Positions 17,250 to 30,133 of a DNA stretch of 64,000 nucleotides are shown piece by piece. The stretch spans positions 7,557,001-7,621,000 of the forward strand of contig NC_017249.1 in the NCBI RefSeq assembly GCF_000284375.1. The letters are read 5' to 3'. This DNA is from Bradyrhizobium japonicum USDA 6 (lineage in GTDB: Bacteria; Pseudomonadota; Alphaproteobacteria; Rhizobiales; Xanthobacteraceae). The position numbers were made by a program, and so were the translations under genes. Within the stretch, counting starts at the first letter, position 1, and each line of letters opens with the position of its first letter. The notes beneath the pieces are model-generated. The model saw nothing but the letters and a program-made list of their open reading frames with translations, ran no database searches and had not been told where the DNA came from.

Positions 17250-17303
17250 GCCCGCGTAAGGTCGCATCCGAATTAGATCGGAGCATTCTCCTCCGGCGCG
17301 TCC

Positions 17304-17345
17304 GATGTCCGCTTCGCCGCCAAGAACGGCGCGATAGCGGACATC
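17304..17345. repeat. Hairpin repeat, copy 1, after the dioxygenase gene
   Basis: Arms GATGTCCGC (17304-17312) and GCGGACATC (17337-17345) are exact reverse complements. A similar copy in the same orientation is at 18538-18580, on the other side of the TauD-type gene, and the sequences after both hairpins (CGCCaGGTGC / CGCCGGATGC and TTCGAA) are also alike. Confidence 0.65.
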
Positions 17346-17362
17346 GCCAGGTGCTTCGAACG

Positions 17363-18436
17363 TCAATCCAGCGGAACGTTCAGACTGGTCCCTTTGGTGA
17401 TAATGCCGCCACGGTTGCCGATCTCGATCGAGCCATAACGCTGTTTGAAGCAATTGGGCAGCGGCCGGTCGCCTTCCATGCTGAGCCAAAGGCGCAACAA
17501 GTGACGCTTCTGGCCCGCGTTAGGCCAATCGCGGAATCCGGTCCGATCATGCAGCAAAGCATGATTGTAAACGAACTGCATGTCACCCGGCTGAAGCCGC
17601 ATGCCAAAATGCAGCGTGGGGTCATTTGCGAGCGCGTCGAAGAGATCGAGCGCTTCGACGTGAGCCGGCGTCAGTCTTGGCGCATCGGGAAAGCGCTGCG
17701 CACTATCGATATACTGGCGCTGATAGAACCCGGTCAGGAACCCCGCATGCCAATTCAGCACCGGGATTTCGAGATATGGCTTTTCGTTCTCCGGCACCTC
17801 GCCGCGCCGGTCTGTCGCGATTGGATCGAACAGGAGGGCGGCAAGATCGGGACGTCTGTCGAACATCTCGTTGTAGATGGCCGTCGTACTGACGAGGAGA
17901 GAATCGCCTCCCTCCATTGCCTCGCGAATGCATAACAGTCCAACCACGTCGGACGAATCCGTGTGGAATGTTTGCCGTTCCGACGTTTGATAAATGCGGG
18001 TGTTCGGATCCCTCGCATCGGCGCCTGTGTCCCGGACGTGACCGAGAATATGACCCGCCGCATTTTGGGACCGCGCCGATCCGAGATGCGCGCCCACCCC
18101 GCAAAATATCGTAGCGGCAAACTCCTGGCTATAATTTGCCACCGGCAAACCGCGCATGACTTCGAAGCCAAGGCCGGCCAGAAGCTTTGCCTTGAGTTCT
18201 TCCAAGTGCGCGCCGAAGCGGGGAAGCGGAAAGCTTTCCTTCGTGATGTCGGCGATTTTCTTGCTTCTGCCGAGATATGATTGAGCCGCGCTCTCAAGCT
18301 CCGCGACCTCGCTGGCGGCAAGCGATATCAACCATCGATCAGGATTGACCTTCATCTCGGCGCCCAGCCAGGCCGATGGGATATCGATCTTCCCCGGAGG
18401 GCGATCTATCCCGCCGGGCGCCGAGAGCGCGTTCAT
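17363..18436 (-). CDS. TauD/TfdA-family Fe(II)/2-oxoglutarate dioxygenase
   Basis: 357 residues. The iron-binding HTDSSD block (H-x-D) and a distal His in NHALLHDRTGF fit the TauD/TfdA fold, with an Arg after it for 2-oxoglutarate. The N-terminal 60 residues have no recognised motif. The substrate is not identifiable; no sulfonate or herbicide genes are adjacent. It lies between two similar hairpin repeats and its base composition is lower in GC than its neighbours, so it may have been acquired separately. Confidence 0.82.
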   Translation of the reverse strand: MNALSAPGGIDRPPGKIDIPSAWLGAEMKVNPDRWLISLAASEVAELESAAQSYLGRSKKIADITKESFPLPRFGAHLEELKAKLLAGLGFEVMRGLPVANYSQEFAATIFCGVGAHLGSARSQNAAGHILGHVRDTGADARDPNTRIYQTSERQTFHTDSSDVVGLLCIREAMEGGDSLLVSTTAIYNEMFDRRPDLAALLFDPIATDRRGEVPENEKPYLEIPVLNWHAGFLTGFYQRQYIDSAQRFPDAPRLTPAHVEALDLFDALANDPTLHFGMRLQPGDMQFVYNHALLHDRTGFRDWPNAGQKRHLLRLWLSMEGDRPLPNCFKQRYGSIEIGNRGGIITKGTSLNVPLD

Positions 18437-18537
18437 ATTGTCGGTTCCTGAGAAAATTGGTCGTCAGAATGAGCGTCGGATCATCGACGATATTGCGCCG
18501 ACCGCTTGTTTGCAACTTGGCCAGGCCAATGCCGCCC

Positions 18538-18580
18538 GATGTCCGCTTCTCTGCCGGCAACGGCGCAACTCGCGGATATC
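18538..18580. repeat. Hairpin repeat, copy 2, before the dioxygenase gene
   Basis: Arms GATGTCCGC (18538-18546) and GCGGATATC (18572-18580), one mismatch. It is a diverged direct copy of the element at 17304-17345. Confidence 0.6.
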
Positions 18581-18704
18581 GCCGGATGCCCGGCACTTTC
18601 GAATTTCAGGGCAAGAACCGGAGTTTGATGTGGGGGGACAACGCCTAGACATTGCAGCGATCGAAGGTCGATCCACGATTCCTGCAAATGAAAGGTGTTT
18701 TTCG

Positions 18705-19157
18705 ATGAGCAAGCAAGATGAGAACAAGGCCGTCGTCGGTCGTTGGTTCACCGAATTCTGGGGCAAATCCGTCAATCTTGGCGTCATCGACGAGATCGCC
18801 GCTCCCGACATGCTGCTCAAATATTCGCTGCATGAACCGCGTCGCGGCCGCGCCGATATCAAGGCGTTCATGACCGACTTCCGCGCCGCGTTTCCCGATC
18901 TCAACTTCTGGGGCACCGCGGACCTGATCGCCGAGGGCGACTATGTCGTTGGTCAATGGGACGGCGGCGGCACTCACACTGGCCCGGCGTTCAACGACTT
19001 CCTGATCGGCGGCCTCCCGGCTGCGACCGGGCGCAAGATGCGCTTCACGGGCACCACGGCGCTCAAGGTCATCGACGGCAAGATTGTCGAGGAGATCGGT
19101 CTTGATGACGGCGTCACCGCACTGACCCAGCTCGGCTTACTCAAGGCGGCGGCCTGA
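18705..19157 (+). CDS. SnoaL-like / ester cyclase family protein
   Basis: 150 residues from ATG 18705; the open frame continues upstream through the hairpin repeat but that part is not protein-like. The core pattern (AAPDMLLKYSLHEPRRGR, FPDLNFWGTADLIAEGDYVVGQW, and FTGTTALKVIDGKIVEE) is typical of SnoaL polyketide-cyclase-like alpha+beta barrels. Many such proteins have no known substrate. There is no polyketide context. Confidence 0.8.
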   Translation: MSKQDENKAVVGRWFTEFWGKSVNLGVIDEIAAPDMLLKYSLHEPRRGRADIKAFMTDFRAAFPDLNFWGTADLIAEGDYVVGQWDGGGTHTGPAFNDFLIGGLPAATGRKMRFTGTTALKVIDGKIVEEIGLDDGVTALTQLGLLKAAA

Positions 19158-19371
19158 TCGGAACGCTACCGCACCATCGGCACATCCGATGCCGTTGAAC
19201 GAGGCTCGCACGTGGTGGGAGCCTCGTCTGCTCTTACGCACCGGACGTATCATCTTTTTCACATCGTCAATCTGGTTCGCGCGGTCCGATCCTTCGCCAG
19301 CCTTCGATTCGAACGGAAGGACCAGAGTTGCCGTCGGAAATCGGGTGGCAACGCCTCCGGCATCGTGGAGA

Positions 19372-19917
19372 CTAGGGCGTGGACTCATAACGGGCAGCCA
19401 GCCATAGCCGGATAGATGCGAGTTGGACGAAGGCGAGGTAGTTTCCCGCAAGCCTGTCGTAGCGCGTCGCCACTCGACGACATTGTTTGATCCTGTTGAA
19501 GAATCGTTCGACCTGGTTACGAGCGCGATAGAAATACGGACTGAAGCAGATCGGATCGCTGCGGTTGCTTTTCGGCGGGATGTTGGCCCATGCGCCCTTT
19601 TTCATGGCAAGCGCTCTTATCCAATCGGCAAGCAGCATTGACCCGAACCTCAGGCGCGAAAGCAATTTTCCGGCAAGTCGAATATCGTGCGCCTCGCCGG
19701 GGCTCAGCGCAAGCCGTACCGGTAAGCCATTGCTATCGACCACCGCGTGTATTTTGCTGGTCAGGCCACCGCGTGACCTTCCCATCGATTGGCGCTGGTT
19801 TCTTGTGATGCAGGCCCCGTGCTGATGCACGCGGACAATCGAGGTGTCGATCATCTGGACCGCGGCATTATGGGCAGCGGCAAGCGCGACTGGACGGAAC
19901 AAGAGCGCGCAAAATGA
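19372..19917 (-). pseudogene. IS5-family transposase remnant
   Basis: The C-terminal half of an IS5-type transposase is readable: an AAAHNAAVQMIDTSIVR stretch, QSMGRSRGGLTSKIHA, and ARNQVERFFNRIKQCRR. The N-terminal third is missing and replaced by unrelated sequence. In addition, the usual DRGYDADW is shortened to ADW (reading SMLLADWIRAL), so the second catalytic Asp region is lost. The remnant cannot be active. It ends about 290 bp before the repeat-rich outer-membrane gene, which runs the other way. Confidence 0.85.
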
Positions 19918-20202
19918 CCAGATGAAACTCCAGATTTGGTCAGTGTCACTGACCACTGCGTGGCTCAATTTCCACAACAAGCGGGAAATTGCCCCACCGT
20001 TTGTTGTCGGCCACACTTATGGCAAATCCGGTGACGAAACATTTACAGCGTGTAGTGTTGGTCCATTTGCAACCAGCGTCAGTACCTGGGTTTGGCGGCG
20101 CTCCGCCGTTCGCGTCCGCGGCAGGGGCGGCCGAACCATCTGACGTGTCCCGACCTTTCATTGTTGCCTTTGCCGATGTGACAACTGTTCTCGGGGGCGG
20201 GG

Positions 20203-20784
20203 ATGAAGTTTGGGTTGTGTCGCTTTGCGCGATTTCCTGTCGCACCGCTTGCGATCTGCTGGTTTTCGAAGCCGGCTCGCGCAGGCGCTGTTACCCCAGT
20301 GCAAGGATTGCACCGCCGCGCCACGGTGTGGACGGCAGTTATGGGCGTGCTGATCGCGTTCTTGTTCGCCAGCCCGGCGTCTGCGCAGCTGCGCGGGCAG
20401 AATGATCCGACGCTTGCCAAGTCGTTCGGGGCGGGGACGATCTCGGTCGGCAGCAGCACGACGCTGACATTCGTCGTCACCGCCGCCAACTTGGGAAACA
20501 GCGGCGTAAACTTCACAGACACTCTGCCCGACGGACTTGTTGTCGCTACCCCCAGCGGCCTGACCAACACCTGCGGCGGCAACGCAACCGCTGGCGGCAA
20601 CAGCATCAGCTTGGCGAACGTCTCCCTGACATCGAACCAGACGTGCACAGTCGTGGTCAACGTGACGGCTACGTCCGCTGGCACGAAGCACAACGGTCCG
20701 GTCAAGCTCTTCTCCGATCAGGGGCCCGGCAACGCCGCAAATGCAAATCTGAATGTAATCGCCGCGCCCCCTTCACCCCCATAA
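20203..20784 (+). CDS. N-terminal part of a frameshifted repeat-rich surface protein (signal peptide + first repeat)
   Basis: 193 residues. A long N-terminal extension ends in a hydrophobic segment and a cleavage-like SPASAQ at about residues 59-64. One repeat follows (LAKSFGAGTISVGSSTTLTF ... TNTCGG ... NVTATSAGTK), the same unit that recurs five times in the next frame. The frame ends at TAA (20782-20784) right after a C5 tract, while the downstream gene continues the same repeat pattern in another frame and has no signal peptide. Adding one C in the tract at 20776-20780 joins the two. Confidence 0.8.
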   Translation: MKFGLCRFARFPVAPLAICWFSKPARAGAVTPVQGLHRRATVWTAVMGVLIAFLFASPASAQLRGQNDPTLAKSFGAGTISVGSSTTLTFVVTAANLGNSGVNFTDTLPDGLVVATPSGLTNTCGGNATAGGNSISLANVSLTSNQTCTVVVNVTATSAGTKHNGPVKLFSDQGPGNAANANLNVIAAPPSPP

Positions 20785-22666
20785 TCGCCAAGAGCTTCGC
20801 GCCTTCGTCGATTCCACTCGGCGGCACATCGGTGCTCACTTTCTCGATCAACAATCCCAATGCTTCGGCAGCGCTCACGGGCGTCGCGTTCACCGATACG
20901 TTTCCCGCTGGGCTCACGGTCGTGGCCCTTCTGAGTAACACCTGCGGCGGCACCGCGACCGCAGGCGGCGCCAGCGTCAGCCTTTCTGGCGCAACCCTCG
21001 CGGGCTCCGCGTCCTGTACGATCTCGGTCAACGTGACCGGCACCACCATCGGCACGAAGGTCAATGCCAGCTCGAACGTCACCTCGACCAATGGAGGGAC
21101 CGGCAACAACGCCAGCGCGTCGCTCGAGGTGACCGCACCGGCTCCTCCTGCAATTGCCAAGAGCTACACGCCTACATCGATTATCCCGGGCGGCCTCTCG
21201 ACACTCAGGTTCACGATCACCAACCCAAATGCTTCGACGGCACTCACGGGGGTCGCGTTCACTGACCCGATTAACCCCCTGCTCACAGTCACGAGCGGCC
21301 TGACCAACACCTGCGGCGGCAACGCGACTGTAGGCGGCGGCAGCGTCAGCCTCTCGGGCGCGACCATCGCGGCCGCCTCATCCTGCACGATCTCGCTCAC
21401 CGTGACCGGCGCCACCCCCGGCAACTATACCAACCTGACCTCAAGCGTCACCTCGACCAACGGAGGGACCGGAAACACTGCAGGTGCGACGCTTACTGTG
21501 AGCGGCCCAGGCGTAGTGCGCCCTCCAGGAATTGCCAAAAGCTTCACGCCTGCATCGATTGCCGCCGGCGCCACCTCGACGCTCGCCATCACGCTCGTCA
21601 ATCCAAATGCTTCGACGGCACTCACGGGGGTCGCGTTCACCGACACTTTTCCCGCGGGGCTCCAGGTCGCGACGCCCAACGGCCTGACCAGCAACTGCCC
21701 CGGGATTGTCTCCGCGCCTGCTGGCGGCAGCAGCGTCAGCCTCTCGGGCGCGACCCTCCCGGCCGGACCAACGGCCTGCTTGATCTCGGTCACCGTGACC
21801 AGCGCTACCCCCGGCAACTATAACAACACCTCGAGCGTCGCCTCGACCAACGCAGGGACCGGCAACACCGCAAGCGCGACGCTCCAGGTGACCACACTGG
21901 CTCCCCCTGGACTGTCCAAGAGCTTCGCGCCTTCGTCGATTGCAGTCGGCGGCACGTCGACGCTCACATTCATGATCAACAATCCCAATCCTTCGACGGC
22001 GCTCACGGGCGTCGCGTTCACCGATGCGTTTCCCGGCGGGCTCCTAGTTGCGACACCAAACGGCCTCACGAACTCCTGCGGCGGCACCCTCACCGCGCCT
22101 GCCGGCGGCGGCAACCTCAACCTCTCGGGCGCGACCCTCGCGGCCGCCTCGTCCTGCACGATCTCGGTCACCGTGACCGGTACCACCATCGGCCCCAAGA
22201 TCAATGCCAGCTCACCGGTCAGTTCGACCAATGCAGGGACCGGAGACAACGCCAGCGCGACGCTCACGGTCAACCCCAATACAGCGGTCTCTCCGAGTGT
22301 CCAAAAAGCCTTCGGCAGCACCTCGATTTCGGCGGGCGGCACAACCTCGCTAACGTTCACCGTCATCAATCCCAACGCGAGTTTGGCGCTCACGGGCGTC
22401 GCGTTCACTGACACGTTCCCGGTGGGGCTCCAGGTTGCTAACCCTACCGGCCTGACCGGGACATGCGGTGGAGGCGCCATCACGGCGGCCGCAGGCGGCG
22501 GCAGCGTCAGCCTTTCCGGCGCAACCCTCGCGGGCTCCGCGTCCTGCACATTCTCGGTCAACGTCACGGGAACGACCGTCGGGTCGCTGACCAACGTCAC
22601 CGACCCCGTCACGTCCACCAACGGCGGAACAGGCAACAGCGCAACCGCCGCCATCACGATCAAGGT
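20405..22666 (+). repeat. Six tandem DUF11-like coding repeats, about 370-386 bp each
   Basis: Unit starts are about 20405, 20778, 21148, 21524, 21905 and 22291. Each begins with an AKSF/SKSF/QKAF motif and contains TLTF..NPNAS, LTGVAFTDTFPAGL, TCGG, SVSLSGATL, SCTISV and TGN. The unit spanning the frameshift is the first. Internal units are more alike at the DNA level than the first and last, as expected for duplication. Confidence 0.85.
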
Positions 22667-24404
22667 GCCGGAGGACAGCCAGCGCTTGCGCGACCTGCAA
22701 CTCATCGTCACCAAGCTTGAAGCCCAGACCTCGGGCGCCGCGGTCTCCGGCGCGGTCGATGAGGCGATCGGGGATGGCTTTACCGAGTGCGCCGGCCCGC
22801 CGATGCCAGTCAAGGCGAACGGTGGCGGCCTGCGCTTCAACTTCGGCTGCGAAGAGCAGACCCGGCCACGACCCCCGGGAATGTCAACCAAGGCGCCCCC
22901 GGAGGTCGTGTACGTGCCGAGACCATTGCAGTTCTGGGCCGACGTGCGCGGCAGCGACTGGAACACCAGCCAGCAGACCGGCGACATCCGCGGCGGACAG
23001 ATCAACGCGCTGTTCGGGGTCACACGTCGCCTCGCGCCCGATCTCCTGATCGGCGCATTCGGCGGCTACGAGAACTTCGACTACACCTCGCAACTCCTCG
23101 ACGGCCGACTCAAGGGGGACGGCTGGACCGCGGGCGGATATTTTGGCTGGCGTTTCCTGCCGGGGCTGCGCTTTGACGCCAGCCTGGCGCGCTCGGTCAT
23201 CAATTATAACGGCGTCGCCGGCACGGCGGCTGCGACCTTCCCGGGGCAGCGCTGGCTCGCGACCGCGGCGCTGATCGGAACCTATAAGAACTACGGCTTC
23301 GAGCTCGAGCCCTCGCTCAAGGTCTATGCCTTGATGGAGCACGAGAACGGCTACACGGACAATCTGGGCACCACGCAGAGCGAACGCAACTTCTCGAACG
23401 GCCGCGCGAGCGCTGGCGCAAAGATCGCGTATCCGTGGCAATGGACGACCACGGTTACCCTCAAACCCTATGTCGGCGTGTACGCCGACTATTATTTCGA
23501 CCGCGACGACGCGGCGCTGCCGACCGCGACGCCGTTGCCGCCGATCCAGACCCTGCAAGGTTGGTCGGCGCGGGTCACGAGCGGCCTCGGCGCGACGCTG
23601 GCAGACGGCCAAAGACTGTCGGTCGATGGCGAACTCGGCGGGCTCGGGAGCAATCAGTTCACCGTATGGTCGCTGCGCGGACGCGCGGCGATACCGTTCG
23701 ATGCGGCCGGTCTTCCAGCAGGCGCTTATCCCAAGGCCGCCGTTGTGACGTCCCCATTCCATGATTGGAGGAGTGGCTTCTACTTCGGCATCAACGGTGG
23801 TGGTGGCTTCGCCCGCAAATGCTGGGATCTTGTTGCGGATGTTTTTGCCAACCTGCCTGGGCCGGAAGGTTGCCATAGCCCGTCCGGCGATACCCTCGGT
23901 GGTCAGATTGGTTACCGCTGGCAGTCAGCCAATTGGGTATTCGGAGTCGAGGGCCAGGGCAACTGGGCCAATTTCAGCGGCAGCAATGTGAGCATGCTGT
24001 TTGCGCCGGATTTCAATCGTACACGCGTGGATGCGTTTGGTTTGATAACTGGTCAGATCGGCTATGCCTGGAACAACGTCTTGCTCTACATGAAGGGCGG
24101 GGCTGCGGTGACCAGCGATAGCTATCACGCCTTCAGTGGCACGACTGGCCTTGCGCTGGCCTCTGCGCGCGAAACCCGTTGGGGCGGCACCGTCGGCGCG
24201 GGCGTGGAATTCGGGTTCGCGCCGAACTGGTCGCTCGGCGTCGAATACAACCACCTGTTCATGGGCACTCGCAACGTCAATTTCACGGACCCGACCGGCG
24301 CCTTCTTCCAGACAGAAAGTATCAGTCAAGGCGTCGATATCGGTCTGGCGCGCCTGAATTATCGTTTCAGCGAATGGGGCGCGCCCGTCGCGGCCCGCTA
24401 TTGA
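20643..24404 (+). CDS. Repeat-rich autotransporter with a second Omp25-type barrel (continuation after frameshift)
   Basis: The meaningful reading begins near 20778, where it takes over from the previous frame; the codons before that are the out-of-frame shadow. Five DUF11-like repeats of about 125 residues span 20778-22666. A linker then leads to an autotransporter beta-barrel (about 22920-23700) whose last strand ends in WSLRGRAAIPF, a proper barrel-terminal Phe. After a short linker a second barrel begins (WRSGFYFGINGGGGF) and ends with IGLARLNYRFSEWG, the pattern of Omp25/RopB porin-like proteins. Two barrels in series are unusual. It would be exported through the Sec system into the outer membrane, exposing the repeats. 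Confidence 0.82.
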   Translation: MHSRGQRDGYVRWHEAQRSGQALLRSGARQRRKCKSECNRRAPFTPIIAKSFAPSSIPLGGTSVLTFSINNPNASAALTGVAFTDTFPAGLTVVALLSNTCGGTATAGGASVSLSGATLAGSASCTISVNVTGTTIGTKVNASSNVTSTNGGTGNNASASLEVTAPAPPAIAKSYTPTSIIPGGLSTLRFTITNPNASTALTGVAFTDPINPLLTVTSGLTNTCGGNATVGGGSVSLSGATIAAASSCTISLTVTGATPGNYTNLTSSVTSTNGGTGNTAGATLTVSGPGVVRPPGIAKSFTPASIAAGATSTLAITLVNPNASTALTGVAFTDTFPAGLQVATPNGLTSNCPGIVSAPAGGSSVSLSGATLPAGPTACLISVTVTSATPGNYNNTSSVASTNAGTGNTASATLQVTTLAPPGLSKSFAPSSIAVGGTSTLTFMINNPNPSTALTGVAFTDAFPGGLLVATPNGLTNSCGGTLTAPAGGGNLNLSGATLAAASSCTISVTVTGTTIGPKINASSPVSSTNAGTGDNASATLTVNPNTAVSPSVQKAFGSTSISAGGTTSLTFTVINPNASLALTGVAFTDTFPVGLQVANPTGLTGTCGGGAITAAAGGGSVSLSGATLAGSASCTFSVNVTGTTVGSLTNVTDPVTSTNGGTGNSATAAITIKVPEDSQRLRDLQLIVTKLEAQTSGAAVSGAVDEAIGDGFTECAGPPMPVKANGGGLRFNFGCEEQTRPRPPGMSTKAPPEVVYVPRPLQFWADVRGSDWNTSQQTGDIRGGQINALFGVTRRLAPDLLIGAFGGYENFDYTSQLLDGRLKGDGWTAGGYFGWRFLPGLRFDASLARSVINYNGVAGTAAATFPGQRWLATAALIGTYKNYGFELEPSLKVYALMEHENGYTDNLGTTQSERNFSNGRASAGAKIAYPWQWTTTVTLKPYVGVYADYYFDRDDAALPTATPLPPIQTLQGWSARVTSGLGATLADGQRLSVDGELGGLGSNQFTVWSLRGRAAIPFDAAGLPAGAYPKAAVVTSPFHDWRSGFYFGINGGGGFARKCWDLVADVFANLPGPEGCHSPSGDTLGGQIGYRWQSANWVFGVEGQGNWANFSGSNVSMLFAPDFNRTRVDAFGLITGQIGYAWNNVLLYMKGGAAVTSDSYHAFSGTTGLALASARETRWGGTVGAGVEFGFAPNWSLGVEYNHLFMGTRNVNFTDPTGAFFQTESISQGVDIGLARLNYRFSEWGAPVAARY

Positions 24405-24925
24405 CCAAGTCTCCTCCTCGTCGAAGAGCGAGCGCCCGACGGTTACAAGGTCGTCACCGACGTGCTGTCGCAGAAGGAGTTGGAAGACATCGCCGCCAAC
24501 TACAAGCGCTGTCGCCGGTTTCCAGGTCGAGGCGTTGAATGCGAAACCGCCTATCGTTGGCGCCGATGTGAAACGCCCGAGCGCTTGAGACACTGGCACA
24601 TCCCCCTCTCCCCTTGCGGGAGGCTCGAGCGGACTGCCGTGCCATCGCATTCCGGGCTGGTGATGCGGTCCGATGGTATGCTCCAGGCGGGCCCCAAGTC
24701 CGGGATCCGGGCAAATACAGACAGTGTCGGCGGTTGTGGTCGAGCTTCAGCAGCTGTTGCCACCTCGGGCGAGGTGAGGAAGACGTCGGAGCACACGTAG
24801 GGTCATCCGGCACACTGCGATTGGCTCATCCCCTGCTCTTCGGCCTGATGGCGTCGACGGTTCCCTGTATCGCTACCAAAATCGCAGCCAAACTGACTGA
24901 AAACGGATGCTGGTCGATCACGACG
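24405..24925. other. 521-bp intergenic region with gene relics
   Basis: No intact gene is visible. Early on, a short coding-like stretch reads DGYKVVTDVLSQKELEDIAANY (about 24439-24504) and then decays, so it looks like a remnant of unknown origin. Near the end, 24826-24871 copies the 3' end of the PQQ dehydrogenase gene located 3 kb further on. Confidence 0.5.
24826..24871 (-). repeat. 46-bp copy of the PQQ dehydrogenase gene 3' end
   Basis: The segment matches 27951-27996 with five mismatches, in the same orientation. On the minus strand both encode QGTVDAIRPKSR at the end of the dehydrogenase. The copy here is cut off from any dehydrogenase body, and is directly before the amidase stop. 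Confidence 0.8.
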
Positions 24926-26392
24926 TTAGATCGCACGCGACTCTGCGCCCAAAATGCGTTCGATGCCGCGGGCAAGGTTTAGAAGCCCCCGGTCGCTCCC
25001 TAACGGGGCATCCAACTCGAGCCCAATCGGCAGCCCCGCGCGAGACAAGCCAACAGGAAGGCTGACACCGGGCAACCCCACGCTGCTTGCCGACAGGGTG
25101 TGGTTCGCCAAAGCGAGGTCGCTGACTTCCTGCCCCGCGATATGGACGGTCGCCTGCTCCTCGATCAAAGGCGCCGTGCGGGGCGTGGTCGGTTGCAGAA
25201 TGACCAGCGCCCCATGAGAGACGAACGCCGTGTTGAGCCGGCGCTGGATTTCCGGCCGGCTCACGTCGAGCGCCGTCTGATAGGCCTCTGCCGAGGTAGC
25301 ACCTGCACCACCCGGCAGTACGATGTGCCCCCACGCCTGCCGAAGTTGGGGCTTAAGGCCCTCGTAAATGGCCTCGAACGTGGTCGGGATGTCATGGCGG
25401 CGAAGAAACTCCGAAATTTCGCCCATCGTCTCATGAGCGAAGATGCCCCATGTTGCGGTTTGGACGAGGGAATTGAAATCGTCGCCAAGGTCTACTTCAA
25501 CGATCTCGGCGCCGGCGTCCTGCAAGCGCCGAACCACCTCGCGGAAGCGGGTCTCGACTTCTGAATCCACCAGTTCCAGGAACTGTCGCGGCGCGAAGGC
25601 CAGCCGGGCTCCCTTCAGGCCGTAGCCGCCGTCGGAGGACTCCGCAGCCTGTTCGCCGGTCACGACCTGATCCACCAGGATGCAGTCCTCAACGCTTCGG
25701 GCGAACACACCCGTCGTGTCGAGCGTATGGGAGATCGGCGCAACGCCGCGGCGCGGCCAACGCCCGGTGGTTGGCTTGAATCCCACGACGCCACAGAACG
25801 ATGCGGGGACCCGGATGGACCCAACGGTGTCACCGCCCAAGGACGCGGGAACGAGGCCAGCGGCCACGGATGCGGCGGAGCCACTCGAGGAGCCGCCCGA
25901 CACGCGATCTCGTGCGTGCGGATTCTTCACCTGGCCGTAACGCGCGTTGTGACCGGTCAAGCCGTACGACATCTCGACGAGGTTGTTCTTGCCGAAGACC
26001 AAAGCGCCCGCCCCCTTAATGGCCCGGACAGCGTCGGCATCTTCGCGCGGCACGAAGTGAGCGAGACCTTCGACGCCCAGGCTGGTAGGTAGCCCTTTCG
26101 TCAAATAACTGTCCTTCACCCCGAGCGGCACGCCAAGGAGCGGGGCCGCCGATCCGGCCGCACGCGATTTGTCTGCGGCCCTTGCGGCCGCCAGCACCCC
26201 GGCCTCGTCGATGGTGATGAAGGCGTTCAGTTCGGCAAGCGCTCGGGCGCGCTGTAAAAGCGCCGCGGTGTAGGCCTCCGAGGTGATGTCGCCGTTGCGA
26301 ACCGCCGCTGCAGCGGCTGCCAGCCCAAGCGAGGCGACATCTGTGGTTGCTCGCGATGCGATGTGGCGTGAAGCCGTGCTCGTCTCGTCCAT
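24926..26392 (-). CDS. Amidase signature family hydrolase
   Basis: 488 residues from ATG 26392 (MDETSTASRHIAS). The amidase signature GGSSSGSAASVAAGLVPASL is complete, containing the Ser-cisSer pair, and the catalytic Lys is in GVPLGVKDSYLT. It resembles mandelamide and indoleacetamide hydrolases, which cleave aryl amides to acids; B. japonicum is known to have an indoleacetamide hydrolase (bam), but I cannot assign this gene to that function. It has two operator-like palindromes upstream and no regulator beside it. Confidence 0.9.
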   Translation of the reverse strand: MDETSTASRHIASRATTDVASLGLAAAAAAVRNGDITSEAYTAALLQRARALAELNAFITIDEAGVLAAARAADKSRAAGSAAPLLGVPLGVKDSYLTKGLPTSLGVEGLAHFVPREDADAVRAIKGAGALVFGKNNLVEMSYGLTGHNARYGQVKNPHARDRVSGGSSSGSAASVAAGLVPASLGGDTVGSIRVPASFCGVVGFKPTTGRWPRRGVAPISHTLDTTGVFARSVEDCILVDQVVTGEQAAESSDGGYGLKGARLAFAPRQFLELVDSEVETRFREVVRRLQDAGAEIVEVDLGDDFNSLVQTATWGIFAHETMGEISEFLRRHDIPTTFEAIYEGLKPQLRQAWGHIVLPGGAGATSAEAYQTALDVSRPEIQRRLNTAFVSHGALVILQPTTPRTAPLIEEQATVHIAGQEVSDLALANHTLSASSVGLPGVSLPVGLSRAGLPIGLELDAPLGSDRGLLNLARGIERILGAESRAI

Positions 26393-26459
26393 GAAATCCT
26401 CGCTATGAGCTGTTTGGCGGCACGCGGCCGCCGCCCAACCGCGGCATCGGCCTGATGCC

Positions 26460-26492
26460 ATTACGATCATAATATTAAATTACGATCGTAAT
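26460..26492 (-). promoter_or_regulatory. Tandem operator-like palindromes before the amidase gene
   Basis: ATTACGATCGTAAT (26479-26492) is a perfect 14-bp palindrome. ATTACGATCATAAT (26460-26473) is the same site with one mismatch. Their centres are 19 bp apart, about two helical turns. The AT-rich spacer could hold the -10 of the amidase promoter, whose start codon is 68 bp downstream on the minus strand. This is the usual layout for cooperative binding of a dimeric repressor. Confidence 0.75.
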
Positions 26493-26893
26493 TCAATAGA
26501 AGCTGCGGCCTCGCCGGGGACACATGAGCGTGAGCCTGTCGGCGGCTCCGCAGGGCTATCGCATATGACATCGGACGGCTGCCGGAAAGCTCGGCCTGCA
26601 TGGTTCGAGACGCCCGCTTTGGCGGGCTCCTCACCATGGGGTTTGATATCTCGCCGTAAAACGCGACCGATCTGAGGGCTCGTGAGGGCTCGCCGCAGGC
26701 GGGCGCCTCGAAGGATGGCCGCAGGCGCGCTTTCCAGCCGCGTTGTCTTCATTGCGATAGCCCCGTGCTGCCCCGGACCTCGCGTTCCGTCCACCTTCAT
26801 TTGAAGGATGACGAGACAATTCGCCGCTGAATGATGGCGAGACAATTCGCCGCAACCACTTTCCACCGAAAGACCCGAATGAGGTCGGGAGAG
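26493..26893. other. Intergenic region with a REP-like hairpin
   Basis: No gene is evident. At about 26602-26637 GAGACGCCCGC and GGCGGGCTC flank TTT with further partial pairing, a form repeated in many places in genomes of this group. Further on there are short GC-rich repeats (CGCCGCAGGCGGGCGCCT). The GGTCGGGAGAG ribosome site of the next gene is at the end. Confidence 0.5.
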
Positions 26894-27954: not shown

Positions 27955-30133
27955 TCACCTGCTCTTCGGTCTGATGGCGTCAACAGTTCCCTGTATGAAG
28001 GCCTGGAGTTTCACGACGTCTCCTTCCGTCAACTTGCCGCTGAAATCCGGCATGCCCTGATCGCGGAATGGACCGTGGAAGAGGATATGCCTCAGACTGG
28101 TGATCTCTTCGGCGCTGACGTAGCCGAGATTGATGATGTTGCCGCCGCGGCCGACGCCAGGCACACCGTGGCAGGCGACGCAGGCTGCTGCGACATAGAT
28201 CTCGCCGCCTTCCCTGATGTCCTTCGGATCGTACTTCACGCCCTGCAGCAGACCATCGGTTTGATATTTGACGAACGCTGGCAGCTTCGCCGTGCCGCCG
28301 AGTGCGTATGTGTAAATCGTTCCCGGGTTCTGGTACTCGGTCGCGCGGTGCGTCAGGCCGTAGGAGCCGCCCCAGCCGACCGCAATCGAGATGTATTGCC
28401 TGTCGTCGACCATGTAGGTTGCGGCGGCCGCCACCGCGCCGGTGCCGGTCGGCATTTCCCACAGCTTGGTTCCGTTTGCCGCATCATAAGCGACGAAGCG
28501 GCCATCCGCCGTCCCCTGGAAAACCAGATTGCCGGCGGTGGTCAGCGTCCCGCCGTTCCAACGGCGACACGTGCTCGACGCGCCAGACTTCCTTTTGATG
28601 CACCGGATCCCAGGCGAGCAGACGTCCGAATGGGGCCGACTTCGGAGGGTTGAAAACGAAGCCGATATTCCCGCCCAGCAAGCCGCCGAGCTTGCCCGGC
28701 GCAGCAGCATTCTGCACGAACGACTTTTCCGGCGACAGATTGACCGGGATGTGCTGCGCCGGAAGGTAGACGAGGCCGGTCAGCGGATTGAACGACATCG
28801 GCTGCCAATTGTGAGCCCCGTCCGGTCCCGGAATCGACTCGTATTGATCTGCGTCGCGCGCCGCCGGCAGTTCGATCGGCCGTCCGTTGGCATCGTATCC
28901 CGTCGCCCAATTCACATCGACGAAGTTCTTCGCCGAGATGAACTTGCCGTTGGTGCGATCGATGACGAAGAAGAAGCCGTTTTTCGGCGCGTGCAGGATC
29001 ACCTTGCGCGGCGCACCGTCGATCTTGATGTCGGCGAGGATCATCGGCTGGGTCGATGTATAGTCCCAATTGTCGCCGGGCGTCTCCTGATAGTGCCAGA
29101 TATATCGGCCCGTGTCGGCGTTGAGCGCGACGATCGAGCCCAGATAGAGATTGTCGCCACCCGACGGACTGCGAAGCTTGCGATTCCAGGGACCGCCGTT
29201 TCCCGTGCCGACATAGACCATGTTCAGATCGGGATCGAACGTGATCGAGTCCCATGGCGCGCCACCGCCGCCGTTGATCCAATACTTCCCTGAGGGATCC
29301 CAGGTCTTCGCCGCGGCTTCCATCGAGGCGTCTTCAAACGGCTTCGATGGATCGCCGGGCACGGTGAACCAGCGCCAGAGCTGATGACCGGTCTCGCTGT
29401 CGTAGGCCGTGACGTAGCCGCGCACACCATATTCGGCACCGCTCTGGCCGATCACGACCTTGCCGTTGAAGACACGCGGCGCGCCGGTGATCGTGTAGGA
29501 ATGCTCATGGTCGATCAGCGTGTCCGTTTCCCAGAGCTTGGCCCCGGTCGTGGCATCGAGCGCGATCAGGCGTCCGTCATAGGCGGCGACGAAGACCTTG
29601 CCCTTGTAGAGTGCGAGGCCACGGCTGACAGCGTCACAGCACCCGCGATAGGTCTTTGACCGGTCAACACCCGGATCGAACGACCAGATTTTTGTACCGG
29701 TCCGCGCGTCAATGGCATGGACCACATTCCAGGGGGCCGACTGATACATGATGCCGTCGACGACGAGGGGCGTTGCCTCGATGCCGCGCGATGATTCCAG
29801 ATTGTAACTCCAGACGAGCCCGAGATCCCTGACGTTGTCGGTGTTGATCTGGTTGAGCTTGCTGAACCGCGTTTCGGCGTAGTCGAGGCCGACGGTCGGC
29901 CAATTCCTTGATGTCTTCGTATTGGCTTCAATGAAGTCGCTGTCGACTCTCGAGATAGTCGCCTTGATGCGGTCCGGCTTCGCATCGGTCCCGCTCTGCG
30001 CCCATGCACTGGACGGGAGGGAAAGGCCCATAAGGGCAAGAGCGACACTGATCTCGCGGAGGGCAATCTGAATCCTGGACCGGTCGCCCGGCTTTTTTTC
30101 AAGCGAATGGCATTCTGCGTTGGATCGTCCCAT
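27955..30133 (-). pseudogene. PQQ-dependent alcohol dehydrogenase with cytochrome c domain, frameshifted
   Basis: The first frame (30133 to about 28562) carries a signal peptide ending SSAWAQSG, the vicinal Cys pair in RGCCDAVSRG, and the beta-propeller repeats of quinoproteins. The second frame (about 28561 to 27955) continues the last propeller blades and a cytochrome c motif CVACHG. A single extra base near 28561 (TTGGAACGG read on the minus strand) splits VEHVSP from WNGGTLTTAG. Together they would give a type II quinohaemoprotein alcohol dehydrogenase that passes electrons to the respiratory chain from the periplasm. It may be a true pseudogene or a sequencing error. No PQQ synthesis genes are near. 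Confidence 0.88.

What the first reader, a model, noticed from the sequence alone, without database searches (positions are those of the whole stretch)
20203..24404. A C-tract frameshift splits a secreted repeat protein, possible phase variation
The signal peptide and first repeat are in one frame; the other five repeats and both barrels are in another and have no export signal. The switch falls at the C5 tract at 20776-20780, with another C5 at 20767-20771 and an immediate TAA. One extra C restores a single protein of about 1,390 residues with a signal peptide. Surface proteins with homopolymer tracts can switch on and off by slippage, but a sequencing error or a real pseudogene would look the same.
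Basis: partly seen in the sequence, partly recalled or inferred. Interest (0 to 1): 0.75.

Follow-up and report, generated by a model that had tools for sequence, protein, structure and literature searches.

The report
Frame-split autotransporter gene with two barrels
A soil bacterium that lives with soybean carries a gene for a large surface protein whose reading frame is broken once near its start; the break is there in the deposited sequence but is more likely a recent loss or a sequencing miscall than an on/off switch.

Summary
An exported-type fragment (20203-20784, one DUF7933 domain) ends at TAA right after two C5 runs. The rest (five DUF7933 domains, autotransporter barrel, second barrel; to 24404) is open in another frame without an export signal. 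By length the genome is Bradyrhizobium japonicum USDA6T. Two close relatives were found among 265 genus genomes: G187 has one uninterrupted frame of 1,175 codons, and G024 is open across the site. So the break is derived. It is the only lesion seen, and the downstream part looks constrained (dN/dS 0.23-0.42 against G024). Phase variation is not supported: C5 is commonplace (182 C-runs of 5 or more in 464 kb; nine in this gene), the relatives differ at the site by substitutions as well as length, and no strain pair was available. It is not excluded, since a C6 run switches bvgS in Bordetella. USDA6T was read mainly by 454 pyrosequencing, so a miscall seriously rivals a recent real break. The less expected feature is the architecture: an autotransporter barrel fused to an OmpA/OmpX-type barrel, shared with G024 and absent from G187.

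The parts
20203..20784 (+). Frame A: export-type N-terminus plus DUF7933 repeat 1, ending at TAA 20782-20784
20203..20385 (+). Signal-peptide-like N-terminus (about 61 residues), by inspection; hydrophobic core and small-residue end conserved in G024 and G187
   Evidence: no predictor run
20407..20757 (+). DUF7933 (PF25564) repeat 1, full-length profile match 1-123
20767..20784 (+). Break region: two C5 runs and the stop codon; differs from both relatives by one base of length and three substitutions
20643..24404 (+). Frame B ORF as listed (GTG start, 1,253 aa); open stop to stop for 1,332 codons; no export signal seen
20787..22672 (+). DUF7933 repeats 2-6 in frame B (outer limits approximate)
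22932..23630 (+). Autotransporter beta-domain PF03797 (profile 1-254 of 255)
23775..24365 (+). Second barrel: long strands, pLDDT mostly above 90, OmpA/OmpX/OmpW-like; Pfam OMP_b-brl
19372..20016 (-). Transposase ORF (DDE_Tnp_1) just upstream; its DNA recurs elsewhere in the genome; DNA shared with G024's upstream region begins at about 19917

Best explanation
The locus is the gene of a large autotransporter-type surface protein: an export signal, a stalk of six DUF7933 domains, an autotransporter barrel, and a fused second outer-membrane barrel of the eight-strand type. In the deposited USDA6T sequence it has one recent, derived, unprogrammed frame change at the linker between repeats 1 and 2. 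If that change is real, the cell would make at most a 193-residue exported single-domain fragment, and the stalk and both barrels, lacking an export signal, would not reach the envelope. Shown: the domains, the split, the open frames in two relatives, and no second lesion in the stretches compared. Inferred: that the break is present in the living strain, that it abolishes surface display, and that the intact protein is an adhesin-like stalk.
For: Domains of one family on both sides of the break. G187 has one uninterrupted frame of 1,175 codons with six repeats by motif, and G024 is open across the site. No stop in 1,205 downstream codons, where 3.3-3.8 would be expected if neutral along a branch of d 0.045 (2.2-5.0 over the range 0.03-0.06). 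dN/dS window vs G024 is 0.42 just after the break (71 codons), 0.29 for last repeats plus first barrel, 0.23 for the second barrel. If the length difference were only a tract miscall, the adjoining codon would still carry a bulky residue at a place that is A, G, S or T in 14 of 14 other repeats found by the pattern; this mildly favours a real event. Isolated one-base indels inside ORFs are not rare here: 14 in 266 kb aligned to both relatives. A second gene of the window is also split near 28560 relative to G150 and G088. The gene lies in a variable region beside a transposase and no close copy was found in the three nearest relatives.
Against: The genome was read mainly by 454 pyrosequencing at 28.7-fold, whose typical error is homopolymer length (recalled; starts of two abstracts in the listing agree). 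Selection on the window's branch is not significantly weaker than on G024's (18 syn/22 nonsyn vs 28/21, Fisher p 0.29), which an intact living gene would also give. No second strain of the species was available.
Confidence: 0.5

Rival explanations
1. Sequencing or assembly miscall: the living strain has an intact gene and the deposited consensus is one base out at a homopolymer.
For: 454/GS-FLX was the main data source. The site is a homopolymer region, there is no other lesion in the stretches compared, and the downstream frame is constrained. Isolated lineage-specific one-base indels number 41 for this genome against 18 and 11 for two relatives; inside ORFs 14 against 8 and 7; of those in runs of 3 or more, 9 of 14 against 2 of 8 and 3 of 7. 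The unfiltered count showed a larger excess (115 coding one-base events against 47 and 36), but in clusters.
Against: The run-location excess is not significant (Fisher p 0.14), and events on the shared stem of the two relatives are counted on this genome's side. Sanger BAC and cosmid end reads and Consed editing were used. The flank also differs by substitutions, with the adjoining codon changed at a residue that is small in the 14 other repeats matched.
Confidence: 0.38
2. Phase variation: reversible slippage in the C tract switches the surface protein on and off.
For: Surface protein, intragenic C run, single-base break, otherwise intact and constrained gene. A run as short as C6 switches bvgS in B. 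pertussis (PMC1891110, passages seen).
Against: C5 is ordinary here: 182 C-runs and 120 G-runs of 5 or more in 464 kb, nine C5 in this gene. In the Bordetella survey C/G tracts were in excess only above 8 bases. The window and the two relatives differ at the site by substitutions as well, not length alone. A search for Bradyrhizobium with phase variation gave 43 papers; by title none of the 12 shown is about phase variation in this genus.
Confidence: 0.07
3. Programmed frameshifting joins the two frames at the ribosome.
For: The frames overlap, and the second is open for more than 370 nt before the stop. A stop codon follows a run of proline codons.
Against: The relatives need no shift at this site. 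The required shift is -1 and the site is not a standard X XXY YYZ heptamer (rule recalled). The 91 nt downstream fold no better than shuffles, z 0.41.
Confidence: 0.02

Closest known systems
Classical (type Va) autotransporters with PF03797 barrels
   Same: Export signal, repetitive passenger, full-length autotransporter beta-domain
   Different: A second barrel follows the autotransporter barrel, and in this strain the signal and barrels are in different frames
Isopeptide/CLIPPER-type stalk domains of fibrillar adhesins (DUF11 and others; DUF7933 is named among isopeptide-domain families in PMC12617251, passages seen)
   Same: Tandem DUF7933 repeats, with cysteines recurring by inspection, in a long surface-type protein; NCBIfam TIGR04226 isopeptide-domain hit, 40.4 bits against a cut-off of 30
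   Different: Bond-forming residues and disulfides were not tested here
Bradyrhizobium outer-membrane beta-barrel proteins (PF13505; the name Omp25/31-like is recalled)
   Same: Second barrel 55-59 percent identical to three free-standing copies of the same genome; OmpA/OmpX/OmpW-type fold matches
   Different: Here it is fused behind an autotransporter barrel, without its own signal peptide
Phase-variable surface genes with homopolymer tracts (Bordetella, Campylobacter)
   Same: Intragenic C run at a frame break in a surface protein gene
   Different: Tract not unusual in length for this genome; no alternative frame state seen within the species

Membership tests
Type Va autotransporter | N-terminal export signal | tested here: inconclusive
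   Present by inspection and conserved in G024 and G187, but in another frame from the barrel; no predictor run
Type Va autotransporter | Autotransporter beta-domain PF03797, full length | tested here: met
   Profile 1-254 of 255, E 6e-17
Type Va autotransporter | Barrel is the C-terminal end of the protein | tested here: not met
   About 257 residues with a second barrel follow; met in the G187 relative
Phase-variable gene by tract slippage | Tract longer than expected by chance | tested here: not met
   C5 common: 182 C-runs of 5 or more in 464 kb, nine in the gene
Phase-variable gene by tract slippage | Tract-length polymorphism between close strains or within a culture | not testable with these tools
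   One genome per species held; G024 and G187 differ by substitutions too
Old pseudogene | Further disabling mutations | tested here: not met
   Single-frame matches to G187 (residues 43-1028 of frame B) and G024 (508-1253); no stop in 1,205 codons
Old pseudogene | Relaxed selection on this branch | tested here: inconclusive
   Constraint detected (22 nonsynonymous of 40, p 0.007 against neutral) but the ratio is nominally higher than on the sister branch, p 0.29
Programmed -1 frameshift | Stimulatory RNA structure downstream | tested here: not met
   z 0.41

The most novel reading that the evidence does not exclude
A double-barrel surface protein, with an autotransporter barrel fused to an OmpA-like barrel and both inserted in the outer membrane from one chain, is switched on and off in a plant symbiont by slippage in a very short C tract.
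Probability: 0.05. Interest if true: 0.75.

Novelty: new variant of a known kind. Interest (0 to 1): 0.33.

Why it matters
If the break is real, the type strain of B. japonicum lacks a large stalk-like surface protein that relatives keep, which bears on comparing strains for root attachment. If it is a miscall, the annotation of this gene needs correction. The autotransporter-plus-second-barrel fusion, constrained between two species, would give a test case for how the BAM machinery handles two barrels in one chain.

Tried and rejected
Old pseudogene: rejected for lack of other lesions in the stretches compared and for continuing constraint. Programmed frameshift: rejected (and open frames in relatives). 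Miscall excess: looked for in 464 kb of this genome, of which 266 kb aligned to both G149 and G150. The first count (one-base events inside ORFs 115 for this genome, 47 and 36 for the relatives) was dominated by clustered gaps, so I replaced it with isolated events in well-aligned flanks (41, 18 and 11 in all; 14, 8 and 7 inside ORFs of 200 aa or more). Suggestive of an excess, not decisive. Longer tracts as better phase-variation candidates: one C10 and one G8 in the same 464 kb; at the C10 both relatives differ by more than length, and the G8 had no match in the relatives' stretches. Promoter and terminator consensus scan: one promoter-like site, on the minus strand, against 0.6 expected; four terminator-like sites against 4.0 expected. 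PHROGs: no hit for either frame. Structure: the second barrel was modelled well (fragment residues 361-570); the autotransporter barrel came out under pLDDT 50, because the 40 other aligned rows cover the second barrel only, so two barrels in one chain rests on Pfam, not on a model. Protein database search: switched off, so wider distribution is unknown. PDB by sequence: no match at E 0.001. Papers on double-barrel chains: searches listed, by title, nothing on such a fusion; those searches were narrow.

Full report
What is there. Frame A (20203-20784, 193 codons) holds a signal-like N-terminus and one DUF7933 domain, and stops at TAA 20782-20784, one base after the second of two C5 runs. Frame B is open from about 20406 to 24404 and holds five more DUF7933 domains, an autotransporter beta-domain and an OMP_b-brl barrel.

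Which genome. The window's contig has 9,207,384 bases, the length given for B. japonicum USDA6T in the abstract of PMC3927601 (seen in the listing). Passages of that paper say 28.7-fold 454/GS-FLX reads, assembled with Sanger BAC and cosmid end reads, edited in Consed and closed by primer walking. Of the 72 named loci, all but two (Afipia, Tardiphaga) are Bradyrhizobium. A section of PMC4070871 counts four autotransporter genes in USDA6T and six in strain 5079; it gives no gene names, so it does not tell which count includes this locus.

Relatives. A DNA search with 22680-23900 hit 61 of 265 genus genomes, this genome included, mostly over part of the autotransporter barrel. Two are close: G024 (93% DNA) and G187 (82%). 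G187 has one uninterrupted frame of 1,175 codons with an export-type start, six repeats by motif, the autotransporter barrel and then a stop. G024 is open from its start through the site into repeat 2; further on its draft sequence has a stray N and a block of Ns inside the repeats, so its full frame cannot be judged. More distant G173 and G106 also carry repeats plus barrel in single open frames of 875 and 788 codons, without a second barrel. At the site the window differs from both close relatives by one base of length and three substitutions within nine alignment columns. The gap therefore cannot be placed uniquely inside the C tract. The surrounding 888 columns are 84% identical to G024, so three nearby substitutions are not remarkable in number. 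They matter for the miscall reading, because the codon next to the tract in frame B would keep a bulky residue where 14 of 14 other repeats found by the pattern have A, G, S or T.

Is it a pseudogene? No other disabling change was found: matches to G187 (residues 43-1028 of frame B) and G024 (508-1253) each run in one frame. Pairwise dN/dS with G024 is 0.28 (145 codons before the break), 0.42 (71 codons just after it), 0.29 (511 codons, last repeats and first barrel) and 0.23 (236 codons, second barrel). Split by branch with G187 as outgroup, synonymous/nonsynonymous changes are 18/22 on the window's side and 28/21 on G024's in the 511-codon block (23 ambiguous sites left out), 8/7 and 19/16 before the break, and 7/8 and 7/8 just after it. 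The window's ratio in the large block is below neutral (p 0.007) and not different from G024's (p 0.29). Had the 1,205 downstream codons been neutral for a branch of d 0.045, 3.3-3.8 stops would be expected (2.2-5.0 over the range tried); there are none. So the break is probably recent, or not real.

Is it a miscall? In 266 kb aligned to both G149 and G150, isolated lineage-specific one-base indels number 41 for this genome, 18 for G149 and 11 for G150. Inside ORFs of at least 200 aa the numbers are 14, 8 and 7, of which 9, 2 and 3 lie in runs of 3 or more. Events on the shared stem of G149 and G150 are counted on this genome's side, so the excess is only suggestive (Fisher p 0.14 for run-location). 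The rate of 14 in 266 kb would put 0.22 such events in 4.2 kb, whatever their cause. A second gene of the window, a PQQ-type dehydrogenase, is split near 28560 relative to a 730-codon ORF in G150 and a 459-codon ORF in G088; G149's ORF there is also short, 554 codons.

Is it phase variation? The 464 kb read hold 182 C-runs and 120 G-runs of five or more; this gene alone holds nine C5 and three G-runs. In Bordetella C/G tracts were in excess only above 8 bases, yet a C6 run switches bvgS (PMC1891110, passages), so shortness alone does not exclude switching. What is missing is any pair of strains that differ only in tract length; the relatives at hand are other species.

Programmed frameshifting. 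The required shift is -1, the site is not a standard slippery heptamer (recalled), the 91 nt after the stop fold no better than shuffles (z 0.41), and the relatives need no shift at this site.

Locus. The gene sits in a region (17260-26828) that differs between this genome and G149, G150 and G088, the three nearest of 265 by one 2.2-kb gene (97, 97 and 96% identity). No close copy was found in them: G149 had no match, G088 was not among the 61, and G150 had only a 65% barrel match; in their syntenic stretches only a 27% match to the second barrel appears. The amidase at 24926-26470 is kept in G088. A transposase ORF (19372-20016, minus strand) lies upstream; two longer copies of its DNA (84 and 86%) and shorter pieces occur elsewhere in the genome. 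Beyond the gene and about 300 bp upstream, the fetched flanks in G024 and G187 match neither the window nor each other, so the gene appears to have moved between contexts.

Architecture. DUF7933 is named among intramolecular-isopeptide domain families in PMC12617251 (passages), and a TIGR04226 isopeptide-domain hit agrees; a stabilised stalk is a fair inference. The second barrel is 55-59% identical to three free-standing outer-membrane barrels of the same genome. Its model has long strands with pLDDT mostly above 90 and matches OmpA, OmpX and OmpW structures (E 3.5e-08 for OmpX 1qj9; TM by target 0.55-0.69 for OmpX and OmpA entries), among many other barrels. The first barrel could not be modelled. 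The fusion is shared with G024 and absent from G187. Among the rows listed only this genome and G024 run from the first barrel into the second; a DNA search would miss diverged fusions. A protein query across the junction in 391 family genomes found no other full-length stop-free match among the rows shown; G192 and G034 span part of the junction with stops (neither G024 nor G187 is among the genomes shown there, and more rows were not listed).

Verdict. A true observation with an ordinary likely cause. I put 0.50 on a recent real break, 0.38 on a miscall, 0.07 on phase variation and 0.02 on programmed frameshifting.

Noticed in passing
window 27955-30133, minus strand: A PQQ-type dehydrogenase ORF matches only positions 1-335 of a 595-position profile and is frame-split near 28560 relative to a 730-codon ORF in G150 and a 459-codon ORF in G088; G149's ORF there is 554 codons.
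   Followed up: partly
window 22932-24401: Autotransporter barrel fused in frame to an OmpA/OmpX-type barrel; fusion shared with G024 and absent in G187.
   Followed up: partly
window 17260-26828: Variable region between conserved flanks; G149 and G150 carry 5.6 and 12.3 kb of other DNA there, G088 8.6 kb that includes the amidase.
   Followed up: partly
window 19372-20016, minus strand: Transposase ORF about 190 bp upstream of the gene's ATG, with related copies elsewhere in the genome.
   Followed up: partly
L159:10691-10700: A C10 run, the only C or G run over 8 in the 464 kb read; G149 and G150 differ there by more than tract length.
   Followed up: partly
L132:4737-4920 and window 20203-20385: G187 and the window share a long export-type N-terminus of about 60 residues; G024 has a much shorter one.
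   Followed up: no
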